Assembly (NCBI RefSeq): GCF_005870035.1
Contig: NZ_SWJG01000002.1
Span: forward strand, 1-64,000
Length of the DNA stretch: 64,000 nt
Direction of reading: 5' to 3'
DNA from: Spirosoma lacussanchae
Lineage (GTDB): Bacteria; Bacteroidota; Bacteroidia; Cytophagales; Spirosomataceae
Shown here: piece by piece, positions 7,730 to 49,716 of the stretch
Numbering within the stretch: position 1 is the stretch's first letter
How the letters are laid out: the number at the start of each line of letters is the position of its first letter
Position numbers and translations under genes: made by a program
Notes under the pieces: model-generated
What the model saw: only the letters and a program-made list of their open reading frames with translations
What the model was told of the DNA's origin: nothing
The model's database searches: none

Positions 7730-10524
7730 GGCACAGAACTCCGTATCATAAACGCCCCGCTCGGCAATGACCGTTCGTGGGGATGAACATGGCGCATGAA
7801 GTCATCCGGGCTTACGGGATTAGGACCGGGTGTCATGCCAAATAGCTTAAAGTGCTGCTCGTTCCAATACACCTGGTTAGTTTCCAGGTTCCACTCCCAG
7901 GTGGCCAGTTCGGTGGCTTCAATGACCAGCCGAAGCCGTTTTTCGGATTCTTGCATGGCCTCTTCAACTCTTGCTCGTTCCAGGGCAGCCCAGGTACGTT
8001 CGGTTACCTCCTCGATCAGTTGAATCTCGTTGGGGGTCCAGCGCCGGGGAACGGCCGAAACCGCCACAATCGCCCAGTATGGGTTGTTCTCGCCTTTGCG
8101 CAAAGTAGCGGCTACGAGTGCCCGCAGGCCGAGGGTGCCGATGTTTCGCTTATCGGTATCGGATAGGCCTTCCGTCTGGGAAAAGTCGTCAATCACCAGC
8201 GTACGCTCGAAGGAGATGCGCAGGGCTTGGGGAAAGTCGGACAGGCAAATGGTATCAGGCATGGGCGGCACCCGGGTGTTCCCCACCTGGTGAGTGATGT
8301 CGGCCCGATCCTGGGCCGGCTGATAGACACCGATGTAACAGCGATCCAGCTCTAACTGCTCGGCCAGCAGTTGAAGAGCCCGGTTGGCGAGGGCATCCGG
8401 GTTGGGCTGTATCCGCAAACTATCCGAAAACCGGAGCAGGAACGTTTGCTGGCGCTCGCGGGCCTTGCGCTCGGTGATGTCTTCATAGACGGCAACGACT
8501 TGGCGGCTGCCTTCACCACCGATGCGCGAAAAGTGTGCGCTGATCCAGCGCTGCAGACTCTCGACCGGGTATTCGGTGCGCACCCGCTCGCCGGTGCGGG
8601 CAACCCCGCAGATGGTTTCAATCCAATACGGTTCAACGGTAGGCAGAAACTCACGGACGGTTTTGCCCACCGGCCATTCAAATCCGAAGATGGTCTTCAC
8701 CACCGGATTGTTTTCGAGATAGCGGTAATCGACCGCCTTGCCCTCCTCGTCGAAGATGGCTTCGAGCGTGCTGACGCCCTCGTCAATCGACTGGAAAACC
8801 GTGCGGAATTTTTCTTCGCTTTCACGCAGGGCGGCTTCGGCCTTGGCTCGTTCCACGGCTGCCCAGGTGCGTTCGGCCGTTTCCTGTAAGAGCCCAACTT
8901 CGTGGTCCTGCCAATGGCGTGGCGTTGTTTGGTGAACAGAGAGATCGGCCACTAGCTTCCCGTTTTTAACCAGCGGTACGGCAACAACGGCTAGCACATC
9001 GATCGAGTAAAACGCTTTTTGTGCATCCTCATCGACCTCTGTACGGACATCATCAATGACCAGGCTCTCCCCTTTTTTGAGTAGTTCGCCGGCAGGACCA
9101 AATGCCGTAAAGGGAAAACGCCCCGTTACGGGTTGAACGGATTTACGGGTATACGTATCGGTTGCGTCAAACCAGTCTTCATCCAGGTTCACCTCCGCAT
9201 AGATGGCCCGGTCAACCCCTAAGTGCTCCCCGAGGATGCGCATGGCCGCCCGTTGAATGGCTATCGGATCAGCCATAGAACGAAGGACATCATTCAGGTC
9301 TAAAAGATAGGCCTGCTGTTGTTCCCGGCGTTTGCGCTCGGTGATATCCTGAAAAACAGCCGCGATGAAGGGGCTGCCTGCGCCACCGACTGGCGAATAA
9401 TGGGCCGTGAGCCAGCGCTGTGTGTCTACGTTGTAGCCTTCCGTCCGTTGGGCAACGCCCGTTTGATACACGCGCTGGAGGGCCCCGAACCAGTTGGGCT
9501 CAATATGGGGAAACACCTCGCTCGCTCGTTTGCCGTTTATGTCAGCAAAACCCGTGTGCCGCTCGAAGGCCTGATTTGCTTCGTGGTAAATCAGATCGTC
9601 GACCTCCCCGTGTTGGTCGAAGAGCAGTTCCTGCACACAGAACCCTTCGTCAATGGTCTCGAACAGGATGCGGTATTTATCGGTAGCCTTTCTGGCTATT
9701 TCTTCCTTCAGCCGAAGCACTTCCCCCTCGGCTCGTTTCTGGCGGCTAATGTCGCGCGTTGTCATGGCCACGCCATCATCGGTCTTCACCAGGGCCAGGT
9801 AGAACCAGCCATCAAACTGCTCGTGGTTGTAGTACTGTTCATGCTCATAAGCCACTCCGGTTTGGGCCACCTCGACCATGTGGTCAAAAATGCCCGCCTG
9901 AACCACGCCAGGGTTCAATTCCAACAGACTTTTGCCGATGACCTCCCCATTTTGGGCAACGGCTTTCTGGTTGTTCATAACCCAGACAAAATCCAGGATC
10001 TGGCCAGCCTCACCCCGTACCGCTTTGAAGACCTGAATAATATCCAGGGAGCTATCAATCACCGATTGCAAGAATGCCCGGCTCTGCTGAAGCTGCTGCT
10101 CGGCTGTTTTGCGGCTGGTAATGTTGGCGGTGGTGGTGGCTACGCCATCATTGAGCTTGACCACCGATTGATGGAACCAGCCATTGAACTGCTCGTGAAC
10201 GTAATGCTTTTCGTAGTGCTGGGGCTCACCCGTGTCCACTACTTGTTTGAAAATCTCAAAAATGCCTTCTTCTACCACGCCGGGTTGGCGTTGCAAGAGA
10301 CTTTTACCCACTACATCGCCGTAGACTTTTTCGGCCGCATGGTTGTTGAGTAGCCAGGTAAAATCAATAATGTGGCCCTGCTCATTACGAATGGCCTGGA
10401 AGACCTGAATCATGTCCATAGACGCATCCAGTGTCGCTCTGAGCAGTTTTTGAATCTCTGGTAGTTCGTCGGCCCACTGGTCACCGGCTGAGTAAGAAGA
10501 AGCCTTTGGGGGCATGTTGTTCAT
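7699..10524 (-). CDS. Hybrid histidine kinase, N-terminal part (five PAS, two GAF domains)
   Basis: This 941-residue frame carries sensor domains in tandem: PAS1 (about 25-140), PAS2 (145-262), PAS3 (285-395), GAF1 (405-565), PAS4 (575-685), GAF2 (690-850) and the start of PAS5. PAS1 and PAS2 are close copies (DMIQVFQAIR/DIIQVFKAVR; HEQFNGWF/HEQFDGWF). PAS3-GAF1 and PAS4-GAF2 form a second duplicated pair (FETIDEG/FQSIDEG; DITERKRREQQQ/DITERKARERQQ). No membrane segments are seen, so it is probably cytoplasmic. The frame ends in an out-of-phase tail just after VHPHER and continues in the 6473-7729 frame after a 1-base shift. If the shift is real the product is a sensor array without a kinase; if it is a sequencing error this is one hybrid kinase. 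The kinase at 5019 follows. Confidence 0.85.
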   Translation of the reverse strand: MNNMPPKASSYSAGDQWADELPEIQKLLRATLDASMDMIQVFQAIRNEQGHIIDFTWLLNNHAAEKVYGDVVGKSLLQRQPGVVEEGIFEIFKQVVDTGEPQHYEKHYVHEQFNGWFHQSVVKLNDGVATTTANITSRKTAEQQLQQSRAFLQSVIDSSLDIIQVFKAVRGEAGQILDFVWVMNNQKAVAQNGEVIGKSLLELNPGVVQAGIFDHMVEVAQTGVAYEHEQYYNHEQFDGWFYLALVKTDDGVAMTTRDISRQKRAEGEVLRLKEEIARKATDKYRILFETIDEGFCVQELLFDQHGEVDDLIYHEANQAFERHTGFADINGKRASEVFPHIEPNWFGALQRVYQTGVAQRTEGYNVDTQRWLTAHYSPVGGAGSPFIAAVFQDITERKRREQQQAYLLDLNDVLRSMADPIAIQRAAMRILGEHLGVDRAIYAEVNLDEDWFDATDTYTRKSVQPVTGRFPFTAFGPAGELLKKGESLVIDDVRTEVDEDAQKAFYSIDVLAVVAVPLVKNGKLVADLSVHQTTPRHWQDHEVGLLQETAERTWAAVERAKAEAALRESEEKFRTVFQSIDEGVSTLEAIFDEEGKAVDYRYLENNPVVKTIFGFEWPVGKTVREFLPTVEPYWIETICGVARTGERVRTEYPVESLQRWISAHFSRIGGEGSRQVVAVYEDITERKARERQQTFLLRFSDSLRIQPNPDALANRALQLLAEQLELDRCYIGVYQPAQDRADITHQVGNTRVPPMPDTICLSDFPQALRISFERTLVIDDFSQTEGLSDTDKRNIGTLGLRALVAATLRKGENNPYWAIVAVSAVPRRWTPNEIQLIEEVTERTWAALERARVEEAMQESEKRLRLVIEATELATWEWNLETNQVYWNEQHFKLFGMTPGPNPVSPDDFMRHVHPHERSLPSGAFMIRSSVPCWKTVPNAG

Positions 10525-10752
10525 ACACTAAGAAGACGGGTGCTTCTTATTAACCAATAAATGGAGGGCCTACACCATATGTTAAACGTTTTTGTTTGCT
10601 TAATTAGCTATCGGTCTCATTAAGTAGCCTGCTATCATCTGTTCTCTCGAAACACCCGTTTTGTGAGCAGAGCCATGAACGCTCACTTGCCTCAGGTAGG
10701 CGAAAGCGCCTACCGATGAAGTTACCCTAAGCTTTTGCCTGAGGACATGAAC

Positions 10753-11169
10753 TCAGACGCTTCTTTTTAGCCCAACTTCAATGTCCGGCTTTCGATGGAG
10801 TAATTCAGCGATGAAGTCCATCTTGTCAGTAGGTGAAATGAGTACACTATCGAATCGATTATAAACTATTTCCAGGCGATCCAGCGAAAGGGCGGGGGAG
10901 CTGATGGGGTTTCGGGTTTCGATGATTTTTTTGATAGACGTAATGGGTAGCTTCTGGTGAAAGAAAAAACCGGCTTGAATATGGAGGGTGTTTTTGTCGA
11001 GTTTATAGCGTGTGGTGCTAAACAAGTGTAGGATCAGTAGGAAAATCACTAGCACAATGGCTACTCCTGGGTAAATCCCTTTGTAGATCATCAGGCTACC
11101 CAATCCAACGAATAAACCGGACAAGGGAATCGCGAGCTCAAGTCCTATTTTCGATTTATAGGTTTTCAT
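10753..11169 (-). CDS. Small membrane protein with bacterial PH-like domain
   Basis: This protein of about 138 residues starts at the ATG at 11169; the longer frame begins with TTG. Two hydrophobic segments (LELAIPLSGLFVGLGSLMI and GVAIVLVIFLLILHL) form a membrane hairpin. They are followed by TTRYKLDKNTLHIQAG and LPITSIKKI...ISSPALSLDRLEIVYNRFDSVLISP, the pattern of bacterial PH-domain proteins in which a beta-rich domain follows a two-helix anchor. The final FIAELLHRKPDIEV helix fits the family. No operon partner is evident. The role is unknown. Confidence 0.7.
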   Translation of the reverse strand: MKTYKSKIGLELAIPLSGLFVGLGSLMIYKGIYPGVAIVLVIFLLILHLFSTTRYKLDKNTLHIQAGFFFHQKLPITSIKKIIETRNPISSPALSLDRLEIVYNRFDSVLISPTDKMDFIAELLHRKPDIEVGLKRSV

Positions 11170-11268
11170 GGTTTCGGTCTTTTTATCGATCTGCTTACTC
11201 CTCAAGAGTTAAGATAGGAAAAAACAACTATCGCGCGTAGCTAAGAGTGAAACAGGATTAGTTATTCG

Positions 11269-11290
11269 TCTCAGGAAGGAGCCTTTTTTG
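11269..11290. repeat. Dispersed intergenic element, weak copy D
   Basis: The stretch begins tctca and continues ggaaggagccttttttg. It resembles the copy at 19642-19667 (tctca...gagccttttgtaag) more than the copies at 4864 and 21279. It lies between the barstar stop and the PH-domain gene start. The assignment to the family is tentative. Confidence 0.2.
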
Positions 11291-11363
11291 AAAATTGATA
11301 CCCATGGCTTCAGATCAGGGAGAAGATCATCTTTCAGCTGAAGTCTTGCCCAACCCAAAAATT

Positions 11364-11756
11364 TTATTCACTAATCACTCGAATGCTTGGATGCTCGGCA
11401 AGTATGGCCATTACCGTGTCAAAATACGTTTTGCCAGTGCCCTTCTCCAGCGCTTCCAACTTTTCTTTAAATAGCTTTTTGTTGTAGGGCGAGCCAGGCT
11501 GCAGCTTCTCCAAATAGTAAGCACGGGTAGTATGATACCCCAAAGCATTCCGGCTGTGGTCCATATGGTACCAGACAAGCTCAACCGACTCGGCTCCTTG
11601 TAGGGCACCGTAGCCCCCATACAGTAAATCATCAAACGCGTCGAGGCTCTGACCGATCTGCCAGCTTTCGACTCCCACAAAGACTCGGTTGATCTCCTCG
11701 TAAAAGGAGGCAATGTCGTTAATGGCATTTCCTTCAATTTCAATCTGTTTAACCAT
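11364..11756 (-). CDS. Barstar-family ribonuclease inhibitor, orphan
   Basis: This 130-residue protein has the barstar fold pattern. An initial strand (VKQIEIEGNAI) is followed by DIASFYEEINRVF, the key helix region QSLDAFDDLLYGGYG and VELVWYHMDHSRNALGY. The Asp-rich LDAFDDLLYGGxG segment corresponds to the part of barstar that plugs the barnase active site. Barstar proteins bind and block a cognate secreted or contact-delivered RNase. No barnase-like gene is visible nearby, so it may be an orphan immunity gene. Its start codon lies only 13 bases from the left end of a decayed IS3-type element, so its original upstream region, and perhaps its partner, may have been displaced. Confidence 0.85.
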   Translation of the reverse strand: MVKQIEIEGNAINDIASFYEEINRVFVGVESWQIGQSLDAFDDLLYGGYGALQGAESVELVWYHMDHSRNALGYHTTRAYYLEKLQPGSPYNKKLFKEKLEALEKGTGKTYFDTVMAILAEHPSIRVISE

Positions 11757-11769
11757 CGTTTATCGAGCT

Positions 11770-12564
11770 CCCAAAAAAGCTGGACAGGTAGTTTAACTTA
11801 AGCCGTCAAGGGTTTGACTACAAATGTCCTATTATGACCAAATATCCCCGTCGTGTTCACGACGCTGCCTTCAAGACCAAGGCCGTCCTGGAAGCTCTCG
11901 AAGGAGCCAAAACCCAACCTGTCCAAGCCGCAGCAAGGCCACTTCATCTATCCTGATCTGCTAAGAGGACTGGCCATTGAATGGCCCAATCAGGTCTGAT
12001 CAACCGCACAGGCGGCCCGGCGACATCACCGACGTGCCGATGGCGAACAGGTTTCTCTACCTCTGCGCGATCATTGACTGGTTCAGTCGTTACATTCTAA
12101 GCTGGCGATTGAGCAACACGCTGCTGGACGATTTTGTGTCGATGCGCAGGAAGAAGCACTCTCGAAGTAGGGTAAGCCAACCATCTTCAACACAGTTCAG
12201 GGCAGTCAGTTCACCAGTCATAATTTTGTCAATCCATTGACAGATAATGAGATATTTGTAAGTATGGACTTCAAAGGGCGGGCTTTGGACAGTATTTTCA
12301 TCGAGCGGTTTTGGCGAACCATTGAGTATGAGCCGCACGGGCGGCCCCGATCTTTATCTGAGAGCCTACACTGATGGACACAGCTCATATGAAGGCCTGA
12401 CGGAGTACTTTTGTTTCTACGATCACGAGCGGAGGTACCAATCATTGGGCTACTAAACCCCGGCCAGGTGGTACGTGGCTGATGGGAGAGGGGAGGGGAA
12501 AGTACAATTCTCAGGCTTGGCACGTCAAGTTTGAAAACACTGAAATCCTGTCCAACTATTGGGG
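11770..12564 (+). mobile_element. Decayed IS3-family insertion sequence with imperfect terminal inverted repeats
   Basis: The left end cccaaaaaagctggacagg (11770-11788) and the right end cctgtccaactattgggg (12547-12564) pair as an imperfect inverted repeat sharing TGGACAGG. The interior holds remnants of both IS3 open reading frames in the expected order. At about 795 bases it is shorter than an intact IS3 element (usually 1.2-1.5 kb), so internal sequence has been lost. No clear target-site duplication is seen at the two edges. Confidence 0.65.
11834..12475 (+). pseudogene. IS3-family transposase OrfA/OrfB remnants
   Basis: The ATG at 11834 reads MTKYPRRVHDAAFKTKAVLE, the OrfA helix-turn-helix start, and stops soon after. 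The rest shows OrfB fragments: IYPDLLRGLAIEWPNQV, then DITDVPMANRFLYLCAIIDW and FSRYILSWRLSNTLLDDF (the first catalytic Asp is in the DITDVPM strand), then in another frame KPTIFNTVQGSQFTS, followed by MDFKGRALDSIFIERFWRT and a final region ending YDHERRYQSLGY-like. Usual NTDQGSQFTS has become NTVQGSQFTS, so the second catalytic Asp is lost. There are multiple stops and frameshifts, so it is inactive. Confidence 0.75.
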
Positions 12565-39389: not shown

Positions 39390-40226
39390 ATGCATCTGTA
39401 TAAAACCCGCTCCGGTATCGTTCTGAGTGATCAGCAGCAGTATTATCACCTCCCCGTTACGGACTGGGACGAACTCGTCAATCAGGATGACCTCCATACC
39501 ATACTGCGCCAGTACACCACCCAGAACACGCCATCTGACGAGTACCAACAGTGGGCCGAAATCGACCTGCTGGCTCCCATCGGCCGGCAGGAAGTATGGG
39601 CTTCGGGCGTAACCTACCTGCGGAGCCGCGACGCCCGGATGGAAGAGTCGAAAAAATCGGGGGGCGATAATTTCTACGACCGCGTTTACGACGCTGAGCG
39701 GCCCGAACTCTTTTTTAAATCCACGGCCGAGCGGGTCGTTGGACCGGGCGACGCCGTCCGGATTCGGGCCGATTCGACCTGGAATGTGCCGGAGCCCGAA
39801 CTGACCCTGTTTATGACCTCGTTGGGTAAGATTGTTGGTTACACCTGCGGTAACGACATGAGTTCACGCAGCATTGAGGGCGAAAATCCGCTTTACCTGC
39901 CGCAGGCCAAAACCTACGACGGCAGCGCGGCTCTCGGGCCTTGTTTGTACGTGCCCGAATCGCCCATCGCGCCCGATGCGCAGATACAGCTGGATATTCT
40001 CCGGGCGGGTCAGCCTGTTTTCAGCAACCGCATTGCCATCAGCCAGATGAAGCGTCAGCATAACGAACTGGTTTCGTTTCTGTTTCGGGAGTGCTCGTTT
40101 CCGAACGGTTGCTACCTCATGACCGGCACCGGTATCGTTCCGCCCGATGATTTTACCCTGGCCAGTCAGGATGAGGTTCGTATCACCATTGACGGAATCG
40201 GAACGCTGACCAATCGGGTAGCCTAG
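39390..40226 (+). CDS. Fumarylacetoacetate hydrolase family protein
   Basis: This 278-residue protein has the FAH core: [24 protein letters not shown] near the front, [28 protein letters not shown] (metal-ligand acidic residues), [35 protein letters not shown] and [14 protein letters not shown]. The family covers hydrolases and isomerases acting on acylpyruvates and sugar acids. The group with an intact [11 protein letters not shown] stretch is often linked to 2-keto-3-deoxy sugar-acid metabolism, but the substrate is not settled. It overlaps the end of purK by 4 bases on the other strand. Confidence 0.88.
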
Positions 40227-41359
40227 GTCACTACCCGGATTCCCGTTTTTACAGCCGATACTTTCTTGCGAAGGGCATCCATGTCGGTGTCCATAACCGT
40301 AACGTGGCCCATCTTCCGGAATGGCTTGGTAATGGCTTTGCCGTAAAAGAAGGGGAACACCCCCGGCATGGTCAGCAGCGTTTCGAGTCCTTCGTAGCGC
40401 GCCGGGCCGGTATGCCCGTCTTCGCCCAGCAGGTTGAGCATGGCGGCTGGCTGGTAGGCGTCGGTGTTGCCCAGGGGGTAGTTCAGGATGGCCCGCCAGT
40501 GTTGTTCAAACTGGGAGGTTACGTTGGCCCGGATGGTATGATGACCACTGTTGTGGGGCCGGGGCGCTACTTCATTGATGAGTACGTTACCGGCTTTGTC
40601 GAGAAACAGCTCAACGGCCAGCAGCCCGACAATGCCAAACGCATCGGCCGTCTGGCGGGCTATGGCCTGCGCCTGCCGGTCTATGTCGGCGGTAATTTCG
40701 GCGGGGGCGAAGAGGTACTCGACCAGGTTCAGCTCCGGATGAAAAACCATCTCTACGGTCGGGAACGTCTGCACGTCGCCCCCTTCGTTACGGGCCACGA
40801 TAACGGCCAGCTCTTTCTCGAAGTCGACCGCTTTTTCGAGTACGCCCGGCGCGTCGAAGGCTTTGTCGGCGTCGGCTGCGGTAGCGATTCGCTGAACGCC
40901 CCGCCCGTCGTACCCGTCGCGGCCGAGTTTATGAAAGGCGGGCAGTAACGCCGGGTTCTGGTTGATCTGCCGGATGGCGTCAGCGCGGTTGTCGGTCAGG
41001 ATAAAGTCGGCCGTGGGCAGGTTATTGTCGCGGTAGAACTGCTTCTGAAGTCGTTTATCCTGAATAACGCGGATAACGGCGGGCTGGGGGTATACGCGCT
41101 TTCCTTCGCGTTCGAGGGCTTCGAGTGCGTCTACATTAACGCGCTCAATCTCAATCGTCAGCACATCGACTCCCTGGCCGAACTGATACACGGTATCGTA
41201 GTCGGTCAGGGAGCCGGTGTTGAATTGAGTACACAAATGGCGGCAGGGTGCGTCGGCGTCGGGGTCGAGCACGTGCACACGCAGGTTCCAGTCAATGGCG
41301 GCTTGCAGGAGCATAAGGCCCAGCTGCCCTCCGCCCAGAATTCCGAGAGTCGGTGTCAA
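40223..41359 (-). CDS. purK: N5-carboxyaminoimidazole ribonucleotide synthase
   Basis: This 378-residue ATP-grasp enzyme of purine synthesis carboxylates AIR to N5-CAIR with ATP and bicarbonate. It begins [20 protein letters not shown] and shows [71 protein letters not shown] and [11 protein letters not shown]. The start is the TTG at 41359: no in-frame ATG lies upstream, and the first internal ATG would delete the GGGQLG nucleotide loop. It lies 30 bases downstream of the NOS gene on the same strand, so it may be the last gene of that transcript. Confidence 0.95.
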
Positions 41360-41389: not shown

Positions 41390-44300
41390 TTACCCGATTC
41401 GATCCATTAACCAGCGTTCTCCCTGCGTATACTTGGCGGCCTGCACTTCGGCCATCGACTGTTTGAAGTTGAGCAATACCCCCCAGACGTCCATGAAGAA
41501 ACGGTTTTCGTGCTGCATGGTCCTGAAAAACTCGACCGCTTCGGTAGCCGACAGACCGCCATACGTGCGGGCCACATTGAGCAGAACGGCAAATACGTCG
41601 TCGGCCATCTTGGCGTCTCCGCAGACATAATAGTGACAATCGGGCTGCGACAGCACCTCCCAGATGGCGGCTCCCTGCCGTCCCATCAGATCCTGCACGT
41701 AGATGCGGTCTTCGCCCAGCCGGGAAAAGGCAACGTCGAGGTGGGTCAGGATGCCTTCTTCGTGCCAGGTTTCCAGTTCCTGCTGGTAGAGGTAGTCGTT
41801 CAGGTTGCGGCAGCCGAAAAACAGGCGTGTTTCGCCCGGCCGGGCCGAACTCCAGCCGGTTTTGGGTCGGCCGTTCATGGCTTTCAGCAGCGGGCTTACG
41901 GGGTAGTTGAGCGTAGCCGACGGCGCATCGGACAGAGCATGGCCGCTGGCCGACTGCTGCGCCTGCCGGAGCATACGAAGCTGTACTTCGCGGTGCTGCA
42001 GAAAACCAACCAGGGGCGACAGGCCCGTTCCGGGTCCGACCATGAGCATTGGCGCCTGCGGATCGCGCGGGGGGCGGAAGTTGGAGGTGCGTACCGATAG
42101 CCTGACATGATCACCCGTGGTTAGCCGGGCCAGATAGTTAGAGCACAGACCCGGTCGCGTATAGCCTTCATCGGTGGTGATCTGCACAACGCCAACCGTA
42201 ACGTGGATCTCAGTCGGGTACACCAGCGAGCAGGATGAGATCGAATACAGGCGGGGGCGCTGGCGGGGTAGCAGCTCAATGAGCTGACCGAATGTGAGCG
42301 CTGCCGACGGAAACGCATCCAGCAAATCGCAGACGCTCATAAATGCGTCGGTAATGTGTTTTTTGAGGGCCTGCCCATCGGGGTCATACTCGTCGCGGTT
42401 CAGCAGTTCGCTCCAGCTCTCCAGCATGGCGCGTTCGGCCGGGTCCTGGGCAGCCGCCAGCAGGGCATCGACAAGCTCGTCGTAGGGTTCGCGGAGCGAC
42501 AGATCGAGGTCTTTGGTCAGCACGTCGCCTACCCGCACCGGAGCCGGGTACGTATGATCGCCCAGGACGTCGGCTCCTTCCGGGGTTGTCAGAGAGGTAT
42601 AAAAATAGGCGTCGGCGTCTATGTTGATCTGATGGCAAATCCGCTCCACCAGGTCGGGTGGATTGTGTGGGTAAATGACAACGTGATCGCCGGTTTCGTA
42701 GGTAAGGCCGGTCTCTGAAATATCGAACGCGATGAATCGGGTTGACCGGCTGCCTACAATCACCTCTTTGAGCAGCTCGCGGTTGGTGATTACGGGCACG
42801 TCGACGCCGGGGTGGCGATGGAGCCGCTTATCCGTCTCGGCGGTATCGACCTGCTCCGCATCAACAAACGACACCTGAAGTTTCCAGTCGGCCTGGCTGG
42901 TCTGCTCCTCGGTCGATCGGCTCGGATCTTCGCCCAGCAAGCGGGCTACCAGACCCAGCCACTGCCGGAAGGTAGCGGCCTGGCCGTTGATTTCGTCGGC
43001 TTTGTGCAGGGCGGCTGCCCGGTTAGCGCCCAGCCGGGCCAGCTGCTGGTCCAGCATGATACCAGCTGCGCAGAAGTGCGGGTAAACGGTATTGCCCAGG
43101 GCCAGTACCGCGAAATGAAGTTTGTTGAAGGCTCCATCGGGCAACTGTCTGATCTGGGCGTAAAAGTGCTGAGCGTTGGCTGGTAGTTCCCCTTTTCGGA
43201 ACGTGGATGAGATAATCAGAAGCCACTGTTCCTGAGGGAGTTGCGCCAGATCGTATTCGTCGAGCGCCATAACCCGCGGATGATATCGACTCAGCCGGCG
43301 GGCGGTTTGGTGGGCGTAGCTTTCAGACGTGCCGGTTTCCGATCCGTACAGGATGAGCAGCCGCTGCGCAACCGGTGTCGAGGCCATCACCTGATCATCA
43401 GCCATGACGTACTGATCATCAATAACTGACCAGCGGTCGGCCGCGTAGTGAAAGCTGGGGTTCAGGTAAAAATCCCGCATTTCGTGGTGCCAGACGGGCG
43501 TCGTACTGCCGCCAGCCGACGGCACCACCCACGACCACTGGGCAGGACACTCGCGACCGGCTCGTTTTTCGCGCTGATCGTGGGTCATAAACTGGCGGGC
43601 GGCCGTCTGGTGATCGACCAGCGTAACCCGGGCTTTGGTGAAGGAGTGCAGTACGGCTACATTCAGCTCCAGAAAGGCGCGGTCGTGCCAGAGTGCGCTG
43701 GAGGTGTCCAGGTTGAAGCTGCGGGCAATGGGTTCGGCCAGGTTGTAGCGGCCTTCTTCCCAGAGGTTGCGGGCAATTTCGGTTTCCATAAACCAGCCGT
43801 TGAACGGCACACAACCGTACTGAACGCCCCCGATGTCGAGCCGGAAGTTGGTAATGGCCGGCACCGCACACCATTGCAGGTTGAGGGCATCAAACGCCGG
43901 GTACTGCGGGTGTTCGAGCGTTACCCGCAGCACATCGTCGGGTTGAAACGAATACAGACGCGGCTGCTGCCCCGGTACGTCAATGACCAGTGGCAGGTAG
44001 TCGAAGGCGGTTTTTTCGGCCGGGGGTGTCCAGCCCTGCCGGACAATGGCCTGAGTGAGTTTCAGGTTGGCGGGGTCGCCCAGTATCGATCCGTCGGGTT
44101 GTTCGTAAGCCGCAAACCGGACGTACTGGCTGTTCCAGATGCGCGGTCCCCAGCGTTCGGCCGGTTTTTTGGGGCGGAAAACGGTCATTACCGTCTGGAT
44201 GATGCCGCCGTTGGTAGCCAGCCGCATGTGTTCAACGCACTCGCGGAACATCGCGTCGGGGTCGTTCACGTGCCGCATATCCCGAACCAGCATGTTCCGC

Positions 44301-45502
44301 CACGAGATGCGCCCAATGCATTTGGTGGCGTTTCGCCAGGCCAGCTGTGCGCCGTATGACAGTTCGTCGTAGGTCTGCGTATAGGTACCTGTCGCCTTGA
44401 TTTCCCGTTCCACTTCGCCCCAACGCCGAATCCGATCGGCCTGGGTCCACTCCAGCTCGGTGGCCAGCTGGTCAATAAACTCGCGGGCTGAGGCCAGTAG
44501 CCGCTGTACGCTGATCATGGGCTGTTGCAGCACATGGCTCACCCGGATGAGGAGCATCGACCAGGCCTTCTCCTGCTCGGCGGAGAAGTTGGGCAGATGC
44601 CGTTTCATGACCGCCAGCATGGGGGCCACCAGTTTAGGATAGGCCTCCGGCGGAATGCCGGCCCGCAGGTGGGTACGGCCCAGGTCGCGGAGTTCCGTAG
44701 CTACATCACGGCCTGCTTCGAGCGAGCGCGTCAGAAACACCAGCGTATGCATCAGGTGTTCGGCCAGCCCGTCAACGTCGGTACGGCCGAAGTAGGGGAG
44801 TAGCTCGGGCTGGGTCTGAAACAGCTCCTGATAAAACTCCGTACCGGTGGCCAGTGCGTTGGCCGCCATAATCTCGCAGCTTTTCCGCATGACCTGCACC
44901 ATGTCCGGCGTCAGCATGCTGGCATAGGCCCGATCCACGTCAAAAGCAGTGGGCAGCAGCTGGAGCGAGAAAAAGCGGTAGAAGGCCGACTCGTTGCCCT
45001 TGGCTATATTATCCCGATCGTAATCTTCAAGGTGTGGCACCTGAGCGATGGTCCACATCCACACCCGGCGGGCCGAGATCCAGTGAACGGGGCGCATACC
45101 CAGATCGGTCAGGAGCGCTATCTGCTGGTCGATTGATTGATGGTGAGCCGGTTGGGATGGGTATACACCCCGGTAACTTTCCCGCAGAATACGCTCGGTT
45201 TGCGGAATCAGCTGCCGCACGCTCTGGTCGAACAGCTGCGCGAAATAACCCGGAACCAGATCGACCGAATCGCCCAGCCGTTCGGCCAGGTCGGGGTTCT
45301 CGTGCAGGAGCCGCTCGAAGAACAACTCAACCAGCATATCCTGAAAAGCCAGGAATTTATTCCATACATCCTTGACAAGCACCTTTTCGGGGGCTGTCAG
45401 GAGTGGCATGGCAGCCAGCTCATCCTGAATGGCAGAGACCGTTGCCGGGGCAAGGTCAGGACCACGGGAGTGAGCCGGATCGTGAACGGAGAAAGTATTC
45501 AT
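41390..45502 (-). CDS. nos: Tandem globin - nitric oxide synthase - flavoreductase fusion
   Basis: This 1370-residue cytoplasmic protein would make NO and citrulline from arginine, O2 and NADPH. Residues about 35-190 are a degenerate globin-like domain. Residues about 195-330 are a clearer globin with a likely proximal His278 (DLGRTHLRAGIPPEAY). The NOS oxygenase (about 335-695) has the heme ligand Cys395 in AWRNATKCIGRISW, substrate Glu575 in GWFMETEIARNLW and pterin-stacking Trp656/Trp658 in CPAQWSWVVP. An FMN domain follows (LYGSETGTSES, 718-728), then the FAD (RLYSISS, 1084-1090) and NADPH (MVGPGTGLSPLVGF, 1154-1167; YVCGDAKMADDV) domains. The oxygenase-FMN linker is short and lacks an evident calmodulin site. 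A polar insert of about 45 residues follows the NADPH glycine motif. It is the fourth gene of the H-NOX operon. Confidence 0.95.
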   Translation of the reverse strand: MNTFSVHDPAHSRGPDLAPATVSAIQDELAAMPLLTAPEKVLVKDVWNKFLAFQDMLVELFFERLLHENPDLAERLGDSVDLVPGYFAQLFDQSVRQLIPQTERILRESYRGVYPSQPAHHQSIDQQIALLTDLGMRPVHWISARRVWMWTIAQVPHLEDYDRDNIAKGNESAFYRFFSLQLLPTAFDVDRAYASMLTPDMVQVMRKSCEIMAANALATGTEFYQELFQTQPELLPYFGRTDVDGLAEHLMHTLVFLTRSLEAGRDVATELRDLGRTHLRAGIPPEAYPKLVAPMLAVMKRHLPNFSAEQEKAWSMLLIRVSHVLQQPMISVQRLLASAREFIDQLATELEWTQADRIRRWGEVEREIKATGTYTQTYDELSYGAQLAWRNATKCIGRISWRNMLVRDMRHVNDPDAMFRECVEHMRLATNGGIIQTVMTVFRPKKPAERWGPRIWNSQYVRFAAYEQPDGSILGDPANLKLTQAIVRQGWTPPAEKTAFDYLPLVIDVPGQQPRLYSFQPDDVLRVTLEHPQYPAFDALNLQWCAVPAITNFRLDIGGVQYGCVPFNGWFMETEIARNLWEEGRYNLAEPIARSFNLDTSSALWHDRAFLELNVAVLHSFTKARVTLVDHQTAARQFMTHDQREKRAGRECPAQWSWVVPSAGGSTTPVWHHEMRDFYLNPSFHYAADRWSVIDDQYVMADDQVMASTPVAQRLLILYGSETGTSESYAHQTARRLSRYHPRVMALDEYDLAQLPQEQWLLIISSTFRKGELPANAQHFYAQIRQLPDGAFNKLHFAVLALGNTVYPHFCAAGIMLDQQLARLGANRAAALHKADEINGQAATFRQWLGLVARLLGEDPSRSTEEQTSQADWKLQVSFVDAEQVDTAETDKRLHRHPGVDVPVITNRELLKEVIVGSRSTRFIAFDISETGLTYETGDHVVIYPHNPPDLVERICHQINIDADAYFYTSLTTPEGADVLGDHTYPAPVRVGDVLTKDLDLSLREPYDELVDALLAAAQDPAERAMLESWSELLNRDEYDPDGQALKKHITDAFMSVCDLLDAFPSAALTFGQLIELLPRQRPRLYSISSCSLVYPTEIHVTVGVVQITTDEGYTRPGLCSNYLARLTTGDHVRLSVRTSNFRPPRDPQAPMLMVGPGTGLSPLVGFLQHREVQLRMLRQAQQSASGHALSDAPSATLNYPVSPLLKAMNGRPKTGWSSARPGETRLFFGCRNLNDYLYQQELETWHEEGILTHLDVAFSRLGEDRIYVQDLMGRQGAAIWEVLSQPDCHYYVCGDAKMADDVFAVLLNVARTYGGLSATEAVEFFRTMQHENRFFMDVWGVLLNFKQSMAEVQAAKYTQGERWLMDRIG

Positions 45503-45548
45503 CGTAAGTATATTGAGTTTAATGGAGTCGGCAGGCGTCGTTGATCAG

Positions 45549-46241
45549 TCATAACAGGTTCAGCCGGTTCATCAGTTCGGACTTGTTGGCCCGACTGATT
45601 GGAATTACCTTGTTTTGAATAACCAGCGTATTCTCTTCGATATCCACGATCTTGCCGAGGTGAACGATATACGATCGATGAACCCGCAGAAACTGTGGGC
45701 CCAGCTTCTCCTCGATATACTTCATGGTAGCGTACACAATATAGGTTTGTGTCGTGGTGAAGATCTTGACGTAGTCGCCCATATTCTCAATATAAGCGAT
45801 GGTGTCGAACGGGAGCCGGATATAGCGCCCGTCGGTTTTGATGTAAATTTCCTGCCGATCCTGCGATACCGTCGGCCGATTACGCGCCCCCAGTTCCAGC
45901 GCCCGCTCAACGGCAATTTTAAACCGGGGCAGGGTAATTGGCTTCTTCAGGTAGTCGGTTACCTGATACTGGTACGCATCGTAGGCATACTCGGTCTTAC
46001 TGGTGGTGAGCACCACCAGCGGAATAGACGACAGTTGCTCGAGCAGTCCGAAGCCCGACAGGTCCGGCATTTCGACATCGAGCCAGATCAGGTCAACGCT
46101 GTGTTCGGCCAGGTAATTCAGCGCTGGTGCTGCGCTGGCAAAGGTACCCACCACACTCAGGGCCTCGTGCTGTTCGCACATGCGCTGCAACGCGTTCCGC
46201 GCCATCAGCTCGTCATCTACAATGATACATGTCAAGCTCAT
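45549..46241 (-). CDS. LytTR-family response regulator
   Basis: This 230-residue two-domain regulator has a receiver (1-120) with acidic Asp9/Asp10, phospho-acceptor Asp55 (LIWLDVEMPD), the switch Thr in VVLTTSKTEYA and LKKPI. The LytTR DNA-binding domain (about 130-230) has IYIKTDGRYIRLPFDTIAYIENMGDYVKI, MKYIEEKLGPQFLRVHRSYIVHL and VIPISRANKSEL. LytTR proteins usually bind pairs of short direct repeats upstream of targets. It starts 3 bases after the hybrid kinase and ends 46 bases before the NOS gene, so it is the natural output of that kinase and a candidate regulator of its own operon. Confidence 0.95.
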   Translation of the reverse strand: MSLTCIIVDDELMARNALQRMCEQHEALSVVGTFASAAPALNYLAEHSVDLIWLDVEMPDLSGFGLLEQLSSIPLVVLTTSKTEYAYDAYQYQVTDYLKKPITLPRFKIAVERALELGARNRPTVSQDRQEIYIKTDGRYIRLPFDTIAYIENMGDYVKIFTTTQTYIVYATMKYIEEKLGPQFLRVHRSYIVHLGKIVDIEENTLVIQNKVIPISRANKSELMNRLNLL

Positions 46242-46244
46242 CGA

Positions 46245-48374
46245 TTAAGCTTTTGGAGAAAGCGTTTTTATCTCGTTCCGTAAGACCGGCAGCAGGTCTG
46301 TAACCTCTTCGACCAGCGCCTGACAACGTTGCACCAGCGGCTCTTTGTCTGCGTTCTGACCCAGGCTCCGTTCAATCTGGCGCAGTTCATCTTCCAGTCT
46401 CGACAGGCCCACCATACCCAGCGTTGGCTTCAGCTTATGGGCCATAGAAGCCAGCATCGACCAGTTCTGGTCGGTACAAAGGTCCGGTAACTGGAGTAGT
46501 TCAGGCACCACATCGTCCAGAAACGTGGCGAACATCTCGGCGGCATGCTCTTTATCCGAACCGTATAGTTCAAACAGTCGCTGCCGGTCCAGAACATCAT
46601 CGGCTGGTAAGGTGGGTTTCGGCTTAACCGAAGGGTCTGTTTTACGGGGGGCGGCTTCCGACGCGGCCGTTGGGGCGTATCGCTCCAGTATGTTCAGCAG
46701 CTGACTTGGCTCGAAAGGCTTGGTCAGGAAATCGTTCATTCCTACTTCCATTGCCAGGCTTTTGTGATCGAGCATGGCGGAGGCTGTCAGGGCGATGATG
46801 GGTATGTGCTGGTTGGGGTTGTGGGTGCTCCGGATGGCCACAGTGGCTTCGTAGCCGTCCATAATCGGCATCTGAATATCCATCAGGATCATGTCGAACC
46901 GCTGCTGTTTGGCTTCCTCAACGGCTTTTTTCCCGTCCGACGCCAGCGTGAACGGAATCTTCCACTTGGTGAGCAGACTGCCGATATAGGTCTGGTTCAT
47001 CAGGTTGTCTTCAACGACCATAACGTGGCTGACGGGCAGTTTACCCACTGTCTTCAGAACAGGGTTGCCAGCATCCCGGTTGTCGGTCGTGGCCGTAGCG
47101 CGGACGTAGGGTAATTTGAACGTAAAGGTACTTCCCTGTCCGTTCTGGCTTCTGACGCTGATGGTTCCTTCCTGAATCTCAACCAGCTCTTTGGTGATAG
47201 CCAGGCCGAGACCGGTTCCTTTGTACTTGTGTCCCTGCGGATTTACTTGTCTGAATTTCTTGAAAATCAGACCCTGTTTATCTTCTGGAATACCGACGCC
47301 CGTATCGGTCACGCTAAACTCGATCCAGCAGCGGTTGTCGTCCTCCTGTACAATCCGGGCGGTGATCTGAATACTGCCTTCTTCCGTGAATTTTTCGGCG
47401 TTGCCGATCAGGTTCATCAGAATCTGGTTCAGCATGACATCGTCGCCGATAAAATCGCCCGAAATACGGGCGTCGTGCATCACGTCGATGGTAACGGGGC
47501 GGTTATGCAGTTTGATCTCGAACACCTTCTGGGTTGCCCGCAGCAGCCCCGCCAGGTCGAAGGGGCGCGGACTCACTTCAATGCGGCCTGCTTCAATTTT
47601 GGTCATGTCGAGCAGATCGGAAATCAGGCTGTGCAGAAAGTCGGCCGATGTTTTCAGGATATCGATGTACTCGCGTTGCTGGCGGGTCGGCTGTGTATCG
47701 AACAGCAGGTGCGACATTCCGATAATGGCGTTGAGGGGCGTTCTGATCTCATGGCTCATGTTGGTCAGAAACTGCTTTTCGGCCCGTTGGGCTTCTTCGG
47801 CTACCTGACGGGCTTTGGCCAGCTCCTGTTCGGCCAGTTTGCGGTCCGACACGTCACGGGCCACGGCTACCAGTTCTACAATCTGACCATCGACGGTAAT
47901 CGGCCGTACGGTCTGACCAATCCAGACGTGGCGACCGTCTTTTGACCGGATCGGAAACTCGTTGTAGGTACTGTCCTGGCCTTCGGTCATCATGGCCAGG
48001 TAAAAATCGGTCAGGGGTTTGCGGTAGTCGTCATCGACGAAGCGCGTAAAATGCGTACCGACAAATTCCGCTTCCGTATAGCCGAGCGATTTCTCAACTA
48101 CCGGACTAACGAACGTGAAATACCCCCTGGGCGAAATTTTGTAGATGATGTCCTGTACCGATTCGATCAGTTGCCGATAGCGTTGTTCGCTTTGCTCCAG
48201 CTCGCCCAGCTTGTCGCGCACCTGCTGTTCGAGGTGGTCGTTAAGGTGCTGGAGCTGGTTGTTGGCATTGTAGAGGGCCAGTGCTTTTTTTTCAAGTATG
48301 GCCTCTGCCTGTAAGCGGGCTGCTTTTTCCCGCGCCAACCGCCTTTTGATCAGGTCTATGTCGTTGTCGGGCAT
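46245..48374 (-). CDS. Hybrid sensor kinase (coiled coil-PAS-HisKA-HATPase-REC-HPt)
   Basis: This 709-residue protein has no membrane helix. It has an N-terminal coiled coil (about 10-65, LARE...LEQQVRDKLGELEQ), PAS (65-180, YKISPRGYFTFVSPVVEKSLGY), dimerisation helix with His208 (FLTNMSHEIRTPLNAIIG), ATPase (N-box NLIGNAEKFT, DTGVGIPEDK, GTGLGLAITKELVE), receiver with Asp499 (MILMDIQMPIMDG) and an HPt domain with His646 (MAHKLKPTLGMVG). The parts predict a full phosphorelay, His208 to Asp499 to His646, then Asp55 of the LytTR regulator 3 bases downstream. It starts 4 bases after the H-NOX gene. H-NOX proteins are known to control such kinases by direct contact, so the signal is probably NO bound to H-NOX. 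Confidence 0.95.
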   Translation of the reverse strand: MPDNDIDLIKRRLAREKAARLQAEAILEKKALALYNANNQLQHLNDHLEQQVRDKLGELEQSEQRYRQLIESVQDIIYKISPRGYFTFVSPVVEKSLGYTEAEFVGTHFTRFVDDDYRKPLTDFYLAMMTEGQDSTYNEFPIRSKDGRHVWIGQTVRPITVDGQIVELVAVARDVSDRKLAEQELAKARQVAEEAQRAEKQFLTNMSHEIRTPLNAIIGMSHLLFDTQPTRQQREYIDILKTSADFLHSLISDLLDMTKIEAGRIEVSPRPFDLAGLLRATQKVFEIKLHNRPVTIDVMHDARISGDFIGDDVMLNQILMNLIGNAEKFTEEGSIQITARIVQEDDNRCWIEFSVTDTGVGIPEDKQGLIFKKFRQVNPQGHKYKGTGLGLAITKELVEIQEGTISVRSQNGQGSTFTFKLPYVRATATTDNRDAGNPVLKTVGKLPVSHVMVVEDNLMNQTYIGSLLTKWKIPFTLASDGKKAVEEAKQQRFDMILMDIQMPIMDGYEATVAIRSTHNPNQHIPIIALTASAMLDHKSLAMEVGMNDFLTKPFEPSQLLNILERYAPTAASEAAPRKTDPSVKPKPTLPADDVLDRQRLFELYGSDKEHAAEMFATFLDDVVPELLQLPDLCTDQNWSMLASMAHKLKPTLGMVGLSRLEDELRQIERSLGQNADKEPLVQRCQALVEEVTDLLPVLRNEIKTLSPKA

Positions 48375-48378
48375 ACGC

Positions 48379-48918
48379 TTAGTCTTTCACGATGTCGAAC
48401 AAAACCTGGCTGCCATCGGCGGTCAACTCCGTTTTCCGGATGGTGGCCGTTTCTCCATAATGAGCCAGGCACCCTTCGATCAGACCATAGGCGAAATCAG
48501 ATAGTTTCCGCTCTGACTGGTAATACATCTTCAGGTGGTTTTCTGAAGGCTGCTCCATGGCGAAGTGGGGTAGCTCCGCATCCGGATATAGCTTTCTCAC
48601 TTCAACATGTATGTAATGCTGAATGGAGTTTAGTAAACTAAAAGCAGAGGTAGACCGCTCGATAAACTGGTAGTAGTTGCGGGTAAAGGAACCAAACATA
48701 TACCGGCCGTAGGCCCGCAGCAGCTCATGAACGGGGGTTGTTGTATGCTGGCTGAGACTGTGCAGCAAAGTAACCATCTCGGCATGATCATACGTCCCAA
48801 TAGCCGTATAAATGCCTCCGGAAGGAAGATTACTTTGGTCCAATATGGTGTCTACCAGCGCGTAACCATACTGGTCCTCAACCATTTCTAAAAGCTCCGT
48901 AAATACAATTCCTTTCAT
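48379..48918 (-). CDS. H-NOX heme NO-binding sensor protein
   Basis: This 179-residue protein starts at the ATG at 48918 (MKGIVFTELLEMVEDQYG); a TTG two codons earlier is not needed. The proximal heme ligand is His104 in YIHVEVRKLYPDAELPHF. The heme propionate motif Y-x-S-x-R is Tyr133/Ser135/Arg137 in MYYQSERKL. At the place where O2-binding H-NOX proteins carry a distal Tyr (three residues before the conserved Gly145) this one has Phe142, which favours NO over O2. H-NOX proteins switch partner kinases or cyclases on NO binding. It is the first gene of the operon leading through the hybrid kinase and LytTR regulator to NOS. Confidence 0.95.
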   Translation of the reverse strand: MKGIVFTELLEMVEDQYGYALVDTILDQSNLPSGGIYTAIGTYDHAEMVTLLHSLSQHTTTPVHELLRAYGRYMFGSFTRNYYQFIERSTSAFSLLNSIQHYIHVEVRKLYPDAELPHFAMEQPSENHLKMYYQSERKLSDFAYGLIEGCLAHYGETATIRKTELTADGSQVLFDIVKD

Positions 48919-49161
48919 GTACAAGCAGTGAGATTAAAACCTTGGCAATATACCAATATGGGTAACAAATTATAAAATTATTAGATGAAATAATTACAAA
49001 TCATAATGGAATATCGACTTAGGTTTTCCAAAAATCGGCAAAACGGTACAGTTCATCGAATAATTGGCCACAAACTATAACAGTAAGATCAAATTTGGGT
49101 CATCAAAGAACAAAATAGTACTTAAGTCAACTACGCCAAAACTTCTACCATTTTCAAACGT

Positions 49162-49716
49162 ATGAAACCAGCATTGAATGACGAAGAAGTTATTCGTCAG
49201 TACCGTAATACTAACCCTAACGAGTGTTTTGAGCTGTTGTATAACCGATATGTACGCAAGGTATACAACAGATGTTATTCAATGACAAAAAATTCGGAGC
49301 AGGCTCAGGATTTTACTCATGATATTTTCCTGCGCATGTTTGCTCACCTGGATCGTTTTCAGGAGCGGTCGTCGTTTTCAACCTGGCTTTATTCGATCTC
49401 TTACAACTACTGCATCGATCAGATCAAGCGGTCGAACCGGCTGGCCACAACCGATCTGGATCAGGAAACCGAATACGCTGTAGCGCAGTCGGCCGATAGT
49501 GACAGTGCAGAAAATAACCTGCAGCAGCTGGCCAAAGCCATGGAATCCATTGCTCCGCAGGAAGCGCTGATTCTGCGGATGAAGTATCAGGAAGGGCTGG
49601 ATGTGCTTCAGATTGCCAAGAAGCTGAACCTGAAAGAAAGTGCCGTGAAAATGCGCCTGAAACGGTCGCGCGATAAAGTTCGTACCCTTTGCGAAGCATC
49701 ACTATGGGCGTCCTGA
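49162..49716 (+). CDS. RNA polymerase sigma factor, ECF type
   Basis: This 184-residue sigma-70 family protein has region 2 at about 25-95 (FELLYNRYVRKVYNRCYSMTKNSEQAQDFTHDIFLRMFAHLDRF, SFSTWLYSISYNYCIDQIKR) and region 4 at about 120-175 (MESIAPQEALILRMKYQEGLDVLQIAKKLNLKESAVKMRLKRSRDKV). Region 3 is absent, as expected for ECF sigma factors. No anti-sigma gene is recognised; the small protein at 49704 overlaps its end by 13 bases. It is divergent from the H-NOX operon across 243 bases. Confidence 0.94.
   Translation: MKPALNDEEVIRQYRNTNPNECFELLYNRYVRKVYNRCYSMTKNSEQAQDFTHDIFLRMFAHLDRFQERSSFSTWLYSISYNYCIDQIKRSNRLATTDLDQETEYAVAQSADSDSAENNLQQLAKAMESIAPQEALILRMKYQEGLDVLQIAKKLNLKESAVKMRLKRSRDKVRTLCEASLWAS

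What the first reader, a model, noticed from the sequence alone, without database searches (positions are those of the whole stretch)
41390..48918. A complete NO make-and-sense operon: H-NOX, hybrid kinase, LytTR regulator and globin-NOS
Seen: four minus-strand genes with gaps of 4, 3 and 46 bases encode, in order, an H-NOX protein (His104, YxSxR), a PAS-HisKA-HATPase-REC-HPt kinase (His208, Asp499, His646), a LytTR response regulator (Asp55) and a 1370-residue globin-NOS-reductase. Known: H-NOX proteins regulate partner kinases on NO binding, and NOS makes NO from arginine. Inferred: the cell makes NO, the H-NOX senses it, and a four-step phosphorelay feeds back on transcription, possibly of this operon. 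I know of H-NOX/kinase operons and of bacterial NOS, but not of both joined as one unit. It could be an autocrine NO signal, or a governor that caps NO production.
Basis: partly seen in the sequence, partly recalled or inferred. Interest (0 to 1): 0.95.

Follow-up and report, generated by a model that had tools for sequence, protein, structure and literature searches.

The report
Nitric-oxide make-and-sense gene cluster
In Spirosoma bacteria, the gene for a predicted enzyme that would make, and likely also destroy, nitric oxide sits in one row behind genes for a predicted nitric oxide sensor and its signal relay, so these cells likely listen to and tune the nitric oxide that they make.

Summary
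In detail: four minus-strand genes (H-NOX, hybrid kinase, LytTR regulator, multidomain NO synthase), gaps 4, 3 and 46 bases, all named residues present. The genome is Spirosoma, near S. sordidisoli. The order holds in 13 of 14 NOS-bearing Spirosoma genomes; the 14th is split over two contigs. The block, with a divergent ECF sigma gene, keeps together in six different left-hand contexts. Five further Spirosoma keep the sensor trio without NOS. In Rhodobacteraceae the same NOS type has H-NOX and a hybrid kinase beside it, divergently, in 6 of 8 loci; the other two end at the NOS. Sixteen other NOS neighbourhoods have no H-NOX. The enzyme is a syNOS-type fusion that should also oxidise NO; this copy lacks the N-terminal C2 region. 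Best reading: a self-contained NO production-and-sensing unit. Untested: co-transcription, NO binding, sign of control; no LytTR site was found. Not wholly new: NOS plus H-NOX in one bacterium was reported in 2015 (recalled; cited).

The parts
48379..48918 (-). H-NOX (heme NO-binding) protein, 179 aa; His104, Pro117, YxSxR 133-137, Phe142 where the O2-binding Ct H-NOX has Tyr140
   Evidence: Pfam HNOB 1.3e-42; solved H-NOX chains align over residues 1-177, best 6ocv 1e-44; residues
46245..48374 (-). Hybrid histidine kinase, 709 aa: PAS, HisKA (His208), HATPase, REC (Asp499), HPt (His646)
   Evidence: Pfam; residues; shorter than the 946-962 aa kinases of 16 other Spirosoma loci
45549..46241 (-). 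LytTR response regulator, 230 aa, Asp55
   Evidence: Pfam Response_reg and LytTR; residue
41390..45502 (-). NO synthase, 1370 aa: pseudoglobin, globin (Tyr224, Phe238, His278), oxygenase (Cys395, Glu575), FMN and FAD/NADPH reductase; no N-terminal C2 region
   Evidence: Pfam; alignment with syNOS 9q05 over window residues 20-1173 and 1223-1366; N-terminal lengths; residues (their roles are recalled family knowledge)
49162..49716 (+). Divergent ECF sigma factor gene, a fifth member of the conserved block
   Evidence: Pfam Sigma70_r2 and r4; beside 18 of 19 Spirosoma H-NOX loci, once as a fragment
48919..49161 (-). Shared intergenic region: TGTTAC box 49 bases before the H-NOX ATG, and the block TTCGATGAACTGTA...TTTTTGG at 49028-49060
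   Evidence: 18 of 18 promoters have the box, and the start of the block 91-93 bases further up; unique in the window's genome with up to 3 mismatches; function unknown, the block probably belongs to the ECF gene

Best explanation
The four genes form one conserved unit in which the NO synthase likely makes NO, the H-NOX protein is predicted to bind that NO, and the hybrid kinase would pass the signal through a four-step phosphorelay to the LytTR regulator, which likely sets transcription of the NO synthase. Shown here: gene order, domains, catalytic and phosphorelay residues, conservation of the block, and a second lineage with H-NOX and kinase beside the same enzyme type. Inferred: that the globin part oxidises NO to nitrate, as in syNOS, so that the enzyme sets a steady state rather than only making NO. 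Inferred: that NO-bound H-NOX lowers kinase activity, as reviewed for Shewanella and Vibrio cholerae, so that high NO would turn the relay and NOS expression down (a homeostat). The sign and the target genes are the weakest steps. Because five Spirosoma keep the sensor trio without NOS, the relay most likely controls other genes too.
For: Order H-NOX, kinase, LytTR, NOS on one contig in 13 of 14 NOS-bearing Spirosoma genomes; H-NOX in 14 of 14 with NOS and 5 of 20 without, among the 34 same-genus genomes tested. The block stays whole in six left-hand and five right-hand gene contexts. NOS, kinase and LytTR trees share their main groups. Two genomes inside NOS-bearing clades (G204, G212) lack both NOS and H-NOX. 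In Rhodobacteraceae, 6 of 8 globin-NOS loci have H-NOX and a hybrid kinase next to the NOS in another arrangement (Pfam in 4). H-NOX absent from 16 of 16 other NOS neighbourhoods. H-NOX ligand and signature residues invariant and no distal tyrosine in 24 of 24. No copper nitrite reductase over its cut-off in 0 of 19 genomes, i.e. none found. Precedent for NO inhibition of the kinase and for a transcriptional loop: PMC8738867 passages.
Against: No LytTR repeat above shuffles in the promoter. In 8 of the 14 Spirosoma NOS loci the LytTR-NOS gap is 154-312 bases, room for a separate promoter. The sensor trio exists without NOS in 5 genomes. The NOS-free loci have an aldehyde dehydrogenase gene in its place, so adjacency may reflect output rather than signal source. 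The tree-corrected co-occurrence test has only 3 pairs and is not significant. No expression, binding or kinase data. Other enzymatic NO sources, such as cd1 nitrite reductase, were not searched.
Confidence: 0.6

Rival explanations
1. The sensor trio responds mainly to NO from outside (neighbours, hosts, denitrifiers), and NOS is one output gene of the relay rather than the source of the signal.
For: Five Spirosoma genomes keep the trio without any NOS match, with an aldehyde dehydrogenase gene in the NOS position. Known H-NOX systems often read external or host NO (PMC8738867 and PMC7232146 passages).
Against: All 14 NOS-bearing genomes have the trio and none of the 34 has NOS without H-NOX; the Rhodobacteraceae pair NOS with H-NOX as well.
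Confidence: 0.22
2. The unit is mainly nitrogen metabolism: the fusion enzyme turns arginine into nitrate as proposed for syNOS, and the H-NOX relay is a safety sensor for leaked NO that acts on defence or ECF-controlled genes, not on NOS.
For: syNOS lets E. coli grow on arginine and its globin oxidises NO to nitrate (PMC6104048 abstract and passages, PMC12922734 passages). Globin Tyr224, Phe238 and His278 are present. The ECF sigma gene is part of the block in 18 of 19 loci.
Against: Direct placement of NOS behind the regulator genes, 25-46 bases after LytTR in 6 of the 14 loci, points to shared expression; nitrate assimilation genes were not searched.
Confidence: 0.12
3. Linkage without function: the genes hitchhike together by descent.
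For: The Spirosoma copies are related by descent, so 13 genomes are not 13 independent events.
Against: The flanks differ between lineages while the block stays whole, and Rhodobacteraceae have the pairing in another layout with very different H-NOX sequences.
Confidence: 0.04

Closest known systems
Silicibacter sp. TrichCH4B NOS and H-NOX pathway (Rao, Smith, Marletta 2015, mBio e00206-15; recalled, paper not held)
   Same: One bacterium encodes both NOS and H-NOX with a kinase and response regulators; PMC5563961 cites it as the only earlier case and adds Microscilla genome bins (passage).
   Different: Alphaproteobacterium with cyclic-di-GMP output (recalled; PMC8738867 passage, gives a diguanylate cyclase target). 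I could not check whether its NOS and H-NOX genes are adjacent. Here the output is a LytTR regulator and NOS is the fourth gene of the row.
syNOS of Synechococcus PCC 7335 (PMC6104048, PMC12922734; passages)
   Same: Pseudoglobin, globin, oxygenase and diflavin reductase in one chain; window residues 20-1366 align. PMC6104048 already places Spirosoma linguale NOS in this branch.
   Different: The window copy lacks the N-terminal C2 region. 'H-NOX' has 0 occurrences in the main text of both papers.
H-NOX with adjacent kinase in Shewanella and Vibrio (HnoK; PMC8738867 passages)
   Same: H-NOX gene directly before a kinase gene; in S. oneidensis a regulator (HnoC) closes a transcriptional loop.
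   Different: Those reviewed outputs are phosphodiesterases, diguanylate cyclases, LuxU or HnoC; here a LytTR regulator and an NO synthase.
Stand-alone bacterial NOS oxygenases of other Bacteroidota
   Same: Same oxygenase family PF02898.
   Different: Frames of 374-395 aa without globin or reductase; no H-NOX in 0 of 10 fetched neighbourhoods had one.

Membership tests
H-NOX, NO-selective type | HNOB fold with proximal His and YxSxR | tested here: met
   Pfam 1.3e-42; His104, Pro117, YQSER
H-NOX, NO-selective type | No distal tyrosine (Tyr140 of Ct H-NOX) | tested here: met
   Phe142; 22 Phe, 1 Leu, 1 Met in 24 aligned rows; role of Tyr140 from PMC9814294 passage; position by recalled spacing from YxSxR
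H-NOX, NO-selective type | Binds NO and not O2 | not testable with these tools
   Needs spectra of the purified protein
syNOS-type NO synthase | Globin, oxygenase and diflavin reductase in one chain with catalytic residues | tested here: met
syNOS-type NO synthase | N-terminal calcium-responsive C2 region | tested here: not met
   40 residues before the pseudoglobin motif against 179-207 in 10 of 14 Spirosoma frames; alignment begins at syNOS 162. So a C2-less relative of syNOS
H-NOX/kinase two-component system | H-NOX next to a kinase with phosphorelay residues and a response regulator | tested here: met
H-NOX/kinase two-component system | NO changes kinase activity | not testable with these tools
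   Needs phosphotransfer assays
LytTR response regulator with autoregulation | Direct-repeat LytTR site at the operon promoter | tested here: inconclusive
   No repeat above shuffles in 15 promoters, with a recalled consensus
Operon | Same strand, short gaps, conserved order | tested here: met
   Gaps 4, 3, 46; 13 of 14 genomes
Operon | One transcript | not testable with these tools
   Needs RT-PCR or RNA-seq

The most novel reading that the evidence does not exclude
A bacterial NO homeostat carried as one block: a combined NO maker and remover whose expression is set by an H-NOX phosphorelay that reads the enzyme's own product, reached in two arrangements (a Spirosoma operon and a divergent Rhodobacteraceae pair), and in the window's lineage taking over from the enzyme's calcium gate, since the C2 region is gone.
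Probability: 0.3. Interest if true: 0.87.

Novelty: new variant of a known kind. Interest (0 to 1): 0.73.

Why it matters
What bacterial NOS-derived NO is for, and where the NO read by bacterial H-NOX proteins comes from, are open questions. A compact unit with maker, probable remover, sensor, relay and transcription factor side by side makes both directly testable in one genus with named, cultured strains, with natural NOS-free and C2-free variants as built-in comparisons. It would also be a bacterial parallel to the animal pair of NOS and soluble guanylate cyclase.

Tried and rejected
LytTR sites: a recalled half-site consensus with 20-23 bp spacing was scored in 15 of 19 promoters (L042, L048 and L057 dropped as near-copies, L047 for its shifted frame). 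Between 6 and 40 of 40 shuffles reached the real score, so nothing stands out. TGTTAC does not recur on the forward strand of the LytTR-NOS gaps (one reverse-strand match, L042).

Conserved intergenic block: first taken as a relay target. It is unique in the window's genome with up to 3 mismatches, but similar blocks lie at ECF relatives elsewhere (L142 2 mismatches, L144 5, L143 7; 16 other ECF loci 8 or more; the window's own 0), and it is degenerate (7-9 mismatches) in L040-L042, two of which have lost or shortened the ECF gene. I assign it to the ECF gene, tentatively.

Denitrification as NO source: the copper nitrite reductase model passes its cut-off in 0 of 19 genomes, with weak matches in 7 of 19. 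Other sources were not searched.

Plasmid copies: 125 plasmid records match, 0 cover 80% of the enzyme; the 30 rows listed match only from about residue 700, the reductase half.

Co-occurrence on an rpoC tree: 2 of 30 genomes (G205, G207, both NOS-bearing) had no rpoC match and were dropped; 3 independent pairs cannot reach significance. The protein tree of the same gene was poorly resolved.

Structure prediction, fold search and the large protein search were not used.

Full report
What is there. Pfam gives HNOB for the first; PAS, HisKA, HATPase, REC and HPt for the second; REC plus LytTR for the third; Globin, NO_synthase, Flavodoxin, FAD_binding and NAD_binding for the fourth.

The organism. 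The window lies in contig 12 of a 6.3 Mb genome. The closest named relative is Spirosoma sordidisoli TY50, whose NOS is about 98% identical; its contig has the length of the contig of G201, a genome of the same genus group as the window's.

The enzyme. It aligns with syNOS of Synechococcus PCC 7335 over window residues 20-1173 and 1223-1366 (syNOS 162-1314 and 1323-1466). syNOS is described as a six-domain enzyme with a regulatory C2 domain, pseudoglobin and NO-dioxygenase globin modules beside oxygenase and reductase, in which calcium moves the C2 domain between the NOS and globin hemes (PMC12922734, passages). The window protein has 40 residues before the pseudoglobin motif, while 10 of 14 Spirosoma frames have 179-207; one of these, L045, aligns with syNOS from residue 4 on. 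So the window copy, the S. sordidisoli copy and the G192 copy lack the C2 region, as does the short G205 frame. Window Ile550 aligns with syNOS Ile695; PMC6104048 (which prints Ile698 in the text and Ile695 in the legend) says that Ile at this place slows NO synthesis and release in iNOS (passage).

Conservation in Spirosoma. In the family scan NOS was in 14 of 222 genomes, all 14 in this genus. I tested for H-NOX the 34 same-genus genomes that the listing named (at least one more, G216, exists): H-NOX was in 14 of 14 with NOS and 5 of 20 without. The fetched regions show H-NOX, kinase, LytTR, NOS in this order in 13 of 14, one of them (G199) with a frame-shifted H-NOX; in G205 the contigs break inside the kinase gene, with H-NOX on one and LytTR and NOS on the other. 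The 5 NOS-free genomes keep H-NOX, kinase and LytTR, followed after 133-199 bases by an aldehyde dehydrogenase gene (one family, Pfam on L054, gaps). A divergent ECF sigma gene sits beside 18 of 19 H-NOX loci, once as a fragment. Genes of 100 aa or more within the fetched flanks (about 4 kb each side) fall into six left-hand contexts: L040-L042; L044-L045; L043 and L049; L047 and L051; L048, L059 and L053; L050. The first two share right-hand genes, so there are five right-hand contexts; L046 ends before its flanks. The block has stayed whole while its surroundings differ. NOS, kinase and LytTR trees (quick method) share their main groups, which also appear in an rpoC DNA tree of 28 of 30 genomes; that tree needs 4 changes of the NOS label against 9.3 on shuffling. 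This fits descent with losses: two NOS-free genomes inside NOS-bearing clades, G204 and G212, have no H-NOX either. The formal co-occurrence test has only 3 pairs and is not significant. One negative is unreliable: in the 71%-complete G209 the ECF relative and the conserved block lie close to a contig end.

A second lineage. A scan of genome contigs with the window NOS found 16 loci: 7 Spirosoma, 8 that I group as Rhodobacteraceae by record title (placement of some genera recalled) and Paraliomyxa miuraensis. In 6 of the 8 an H-NOX gene and a hybrid kinase lie next to the NOS and point the other way, with 84-515 bases between the H-NOX frame and the NOS; Pfam confirmed H-NOX and HisKA-HATPase-REC in the 4 scanned (L066, L068, L070, L071). 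The other 2 (L067, L073) lie at contig ends; in the genome of L067 an H-NOX and kinase pair begins another contig (L105), which fits but does not prove the same layout. NOS is rare in that family: 3 of 394 genomes, one of them (G798) a broken oxygenase-only gene without H-NOX in the 18 kb fetched.

Controls. Outside Spirosoma, 6 of 390 order-level and 5 of 296 phylum-level genomes have NOS; ten have frames of 374-395 aa (one of them with a stop inside) and one is a short weak match (G443). Ten of these neighbourhoods (not G443) and one stand-alone Myxococcota NOS were fetched: H-NOX in 0 of 11. Four further Myxococcota loci with larger NOS genes (L072, L107, L108, L109): 0 of 4. With G798, 0 of 16; both positive controls in the same run were found. 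Five of the Bacteroidota genomes (G290, G325, G333, G344, G443) were searched whole for H-NOX: 0 of 5. Paraliomyxa has one H-NOX domain in a 735-aa frame on a contig without its NOS genes. The pairing thus goes with the globin-NOS of two groups, not with NOS in general. Cyanobacteria could not be surveyed.

How it most likely works. H-NOX without the distal tyrosine that stabilises O2 in Ct H-NOX (PMC9814294 passage) is expected to be NO-selective; no tyrosine stands at this place in 24 of 24 aligned sequences (18 of 19 Spirosoma, L047 left out, plus 6 Rhodobacteraceae). A review states that NO-bound H-NOX inhibits its kinase in V. cholerae and S. oneidensis and that S. oneidensis HnoC forms a transcriptional loop (PMC8738867 passages). 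By analogy the relay His208, Asp499, His646, Asp55 would fall silent when NO is high. If phospho-LytTR activates this operon, that is negative feedback on NOS expression, on top of the enzyme's own probable NO removal. Sign and target are inference. I looked for LytTR repeats and found none above chance. A TGTTAC box lies 47-80 bases before the H-NOX start in 18 of 18 promoters, and a longer block starts 91-93 bases further up in all 18; that block probably belongs to the ECF gene. The LytTR-NOS gap is 25-46 bases in 6 of 14 loci and 154-312 in 8, so NOS may have its own promoter in the latter.

What is known already. A bacterium with both NOS and H-NOX is not new: Rao and colleagues reported Silicibacter sp. 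TrichCH4B in 2015 (recalled; not held), and PMC5563961 names it as the only earlier lineage while reporting both genes in Microscilla bins (passage). PMC6104048 puts Spirosoma linguale NOS in the globin-NOS branch (passage). I found no description of the joined unit: 'Spirosoma' with 'H-NOX' gives 0 papers, and nothing in the listings of searches or in the passages I read describes it; most subscription papers are not held, and long hit lists were seen only in part.

Verdict. Real, conserved in two lineages, mechanistically plausible and testable: a new variant of a known kind, of clearly more than routine interest.

Noticed in passing
L052:1574-3274 (G205): NOS reduced to pseudoglobin plus oxygenase (566 aa), without globin or reductase, at the same locus and followed by purK; from a fragmented metagenome assembly.
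   Followed up: partly
L047 around 4468 (G199): H-NOX gene frame-shifted: the normal start lies upstream in another frame; real change or sequencing error not known.
   Followed up: no
L054:3496-5118 and the same place in L055-L058: In the five NOS-free Spirosoma with the sensor trio an aldehyde dehydrogenase gene takes the NOS position; no NCBIfam model passes its cut-off on the L054 protein.
   Followed up: partly
window 46245-48374: The window kinase and its S. sordidisoli copy lack a stretch of about 245 aa present in the other full-length Spirosoma kinases aligned; L045 has three PAS matches where the window has one.
   Followed up: partly
window 40223-41359: purK starts 30 bases after the NOS stop on the same strand; seen only in the window, S. 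sordidisoli and G205.
   Followed up: partly
L034-L039 (G196, G200, G201, G215): Second or third H-NOX matches away from the cassette in four NOS-bearing Spirosoma, some with stops inside.
   Followed up: no
L108:3938-5965: A histidine kinase frame lies divergently beside one Paraliomyxa NOS (7580-12307) without H-NOX.
   Followed up: no
L170:3156-4827: Two LytTR-regulator frames near a stand-alone NOS gene of another Cytophagales-order family.
   Followed up: no
window 49028-49060: A conserved 33-bp block at a fixed 91-93 bp from the H-NOX promoter box in 18 of 18 loci, also seen at some ECF genes elsewhere.
   Followed up: partly
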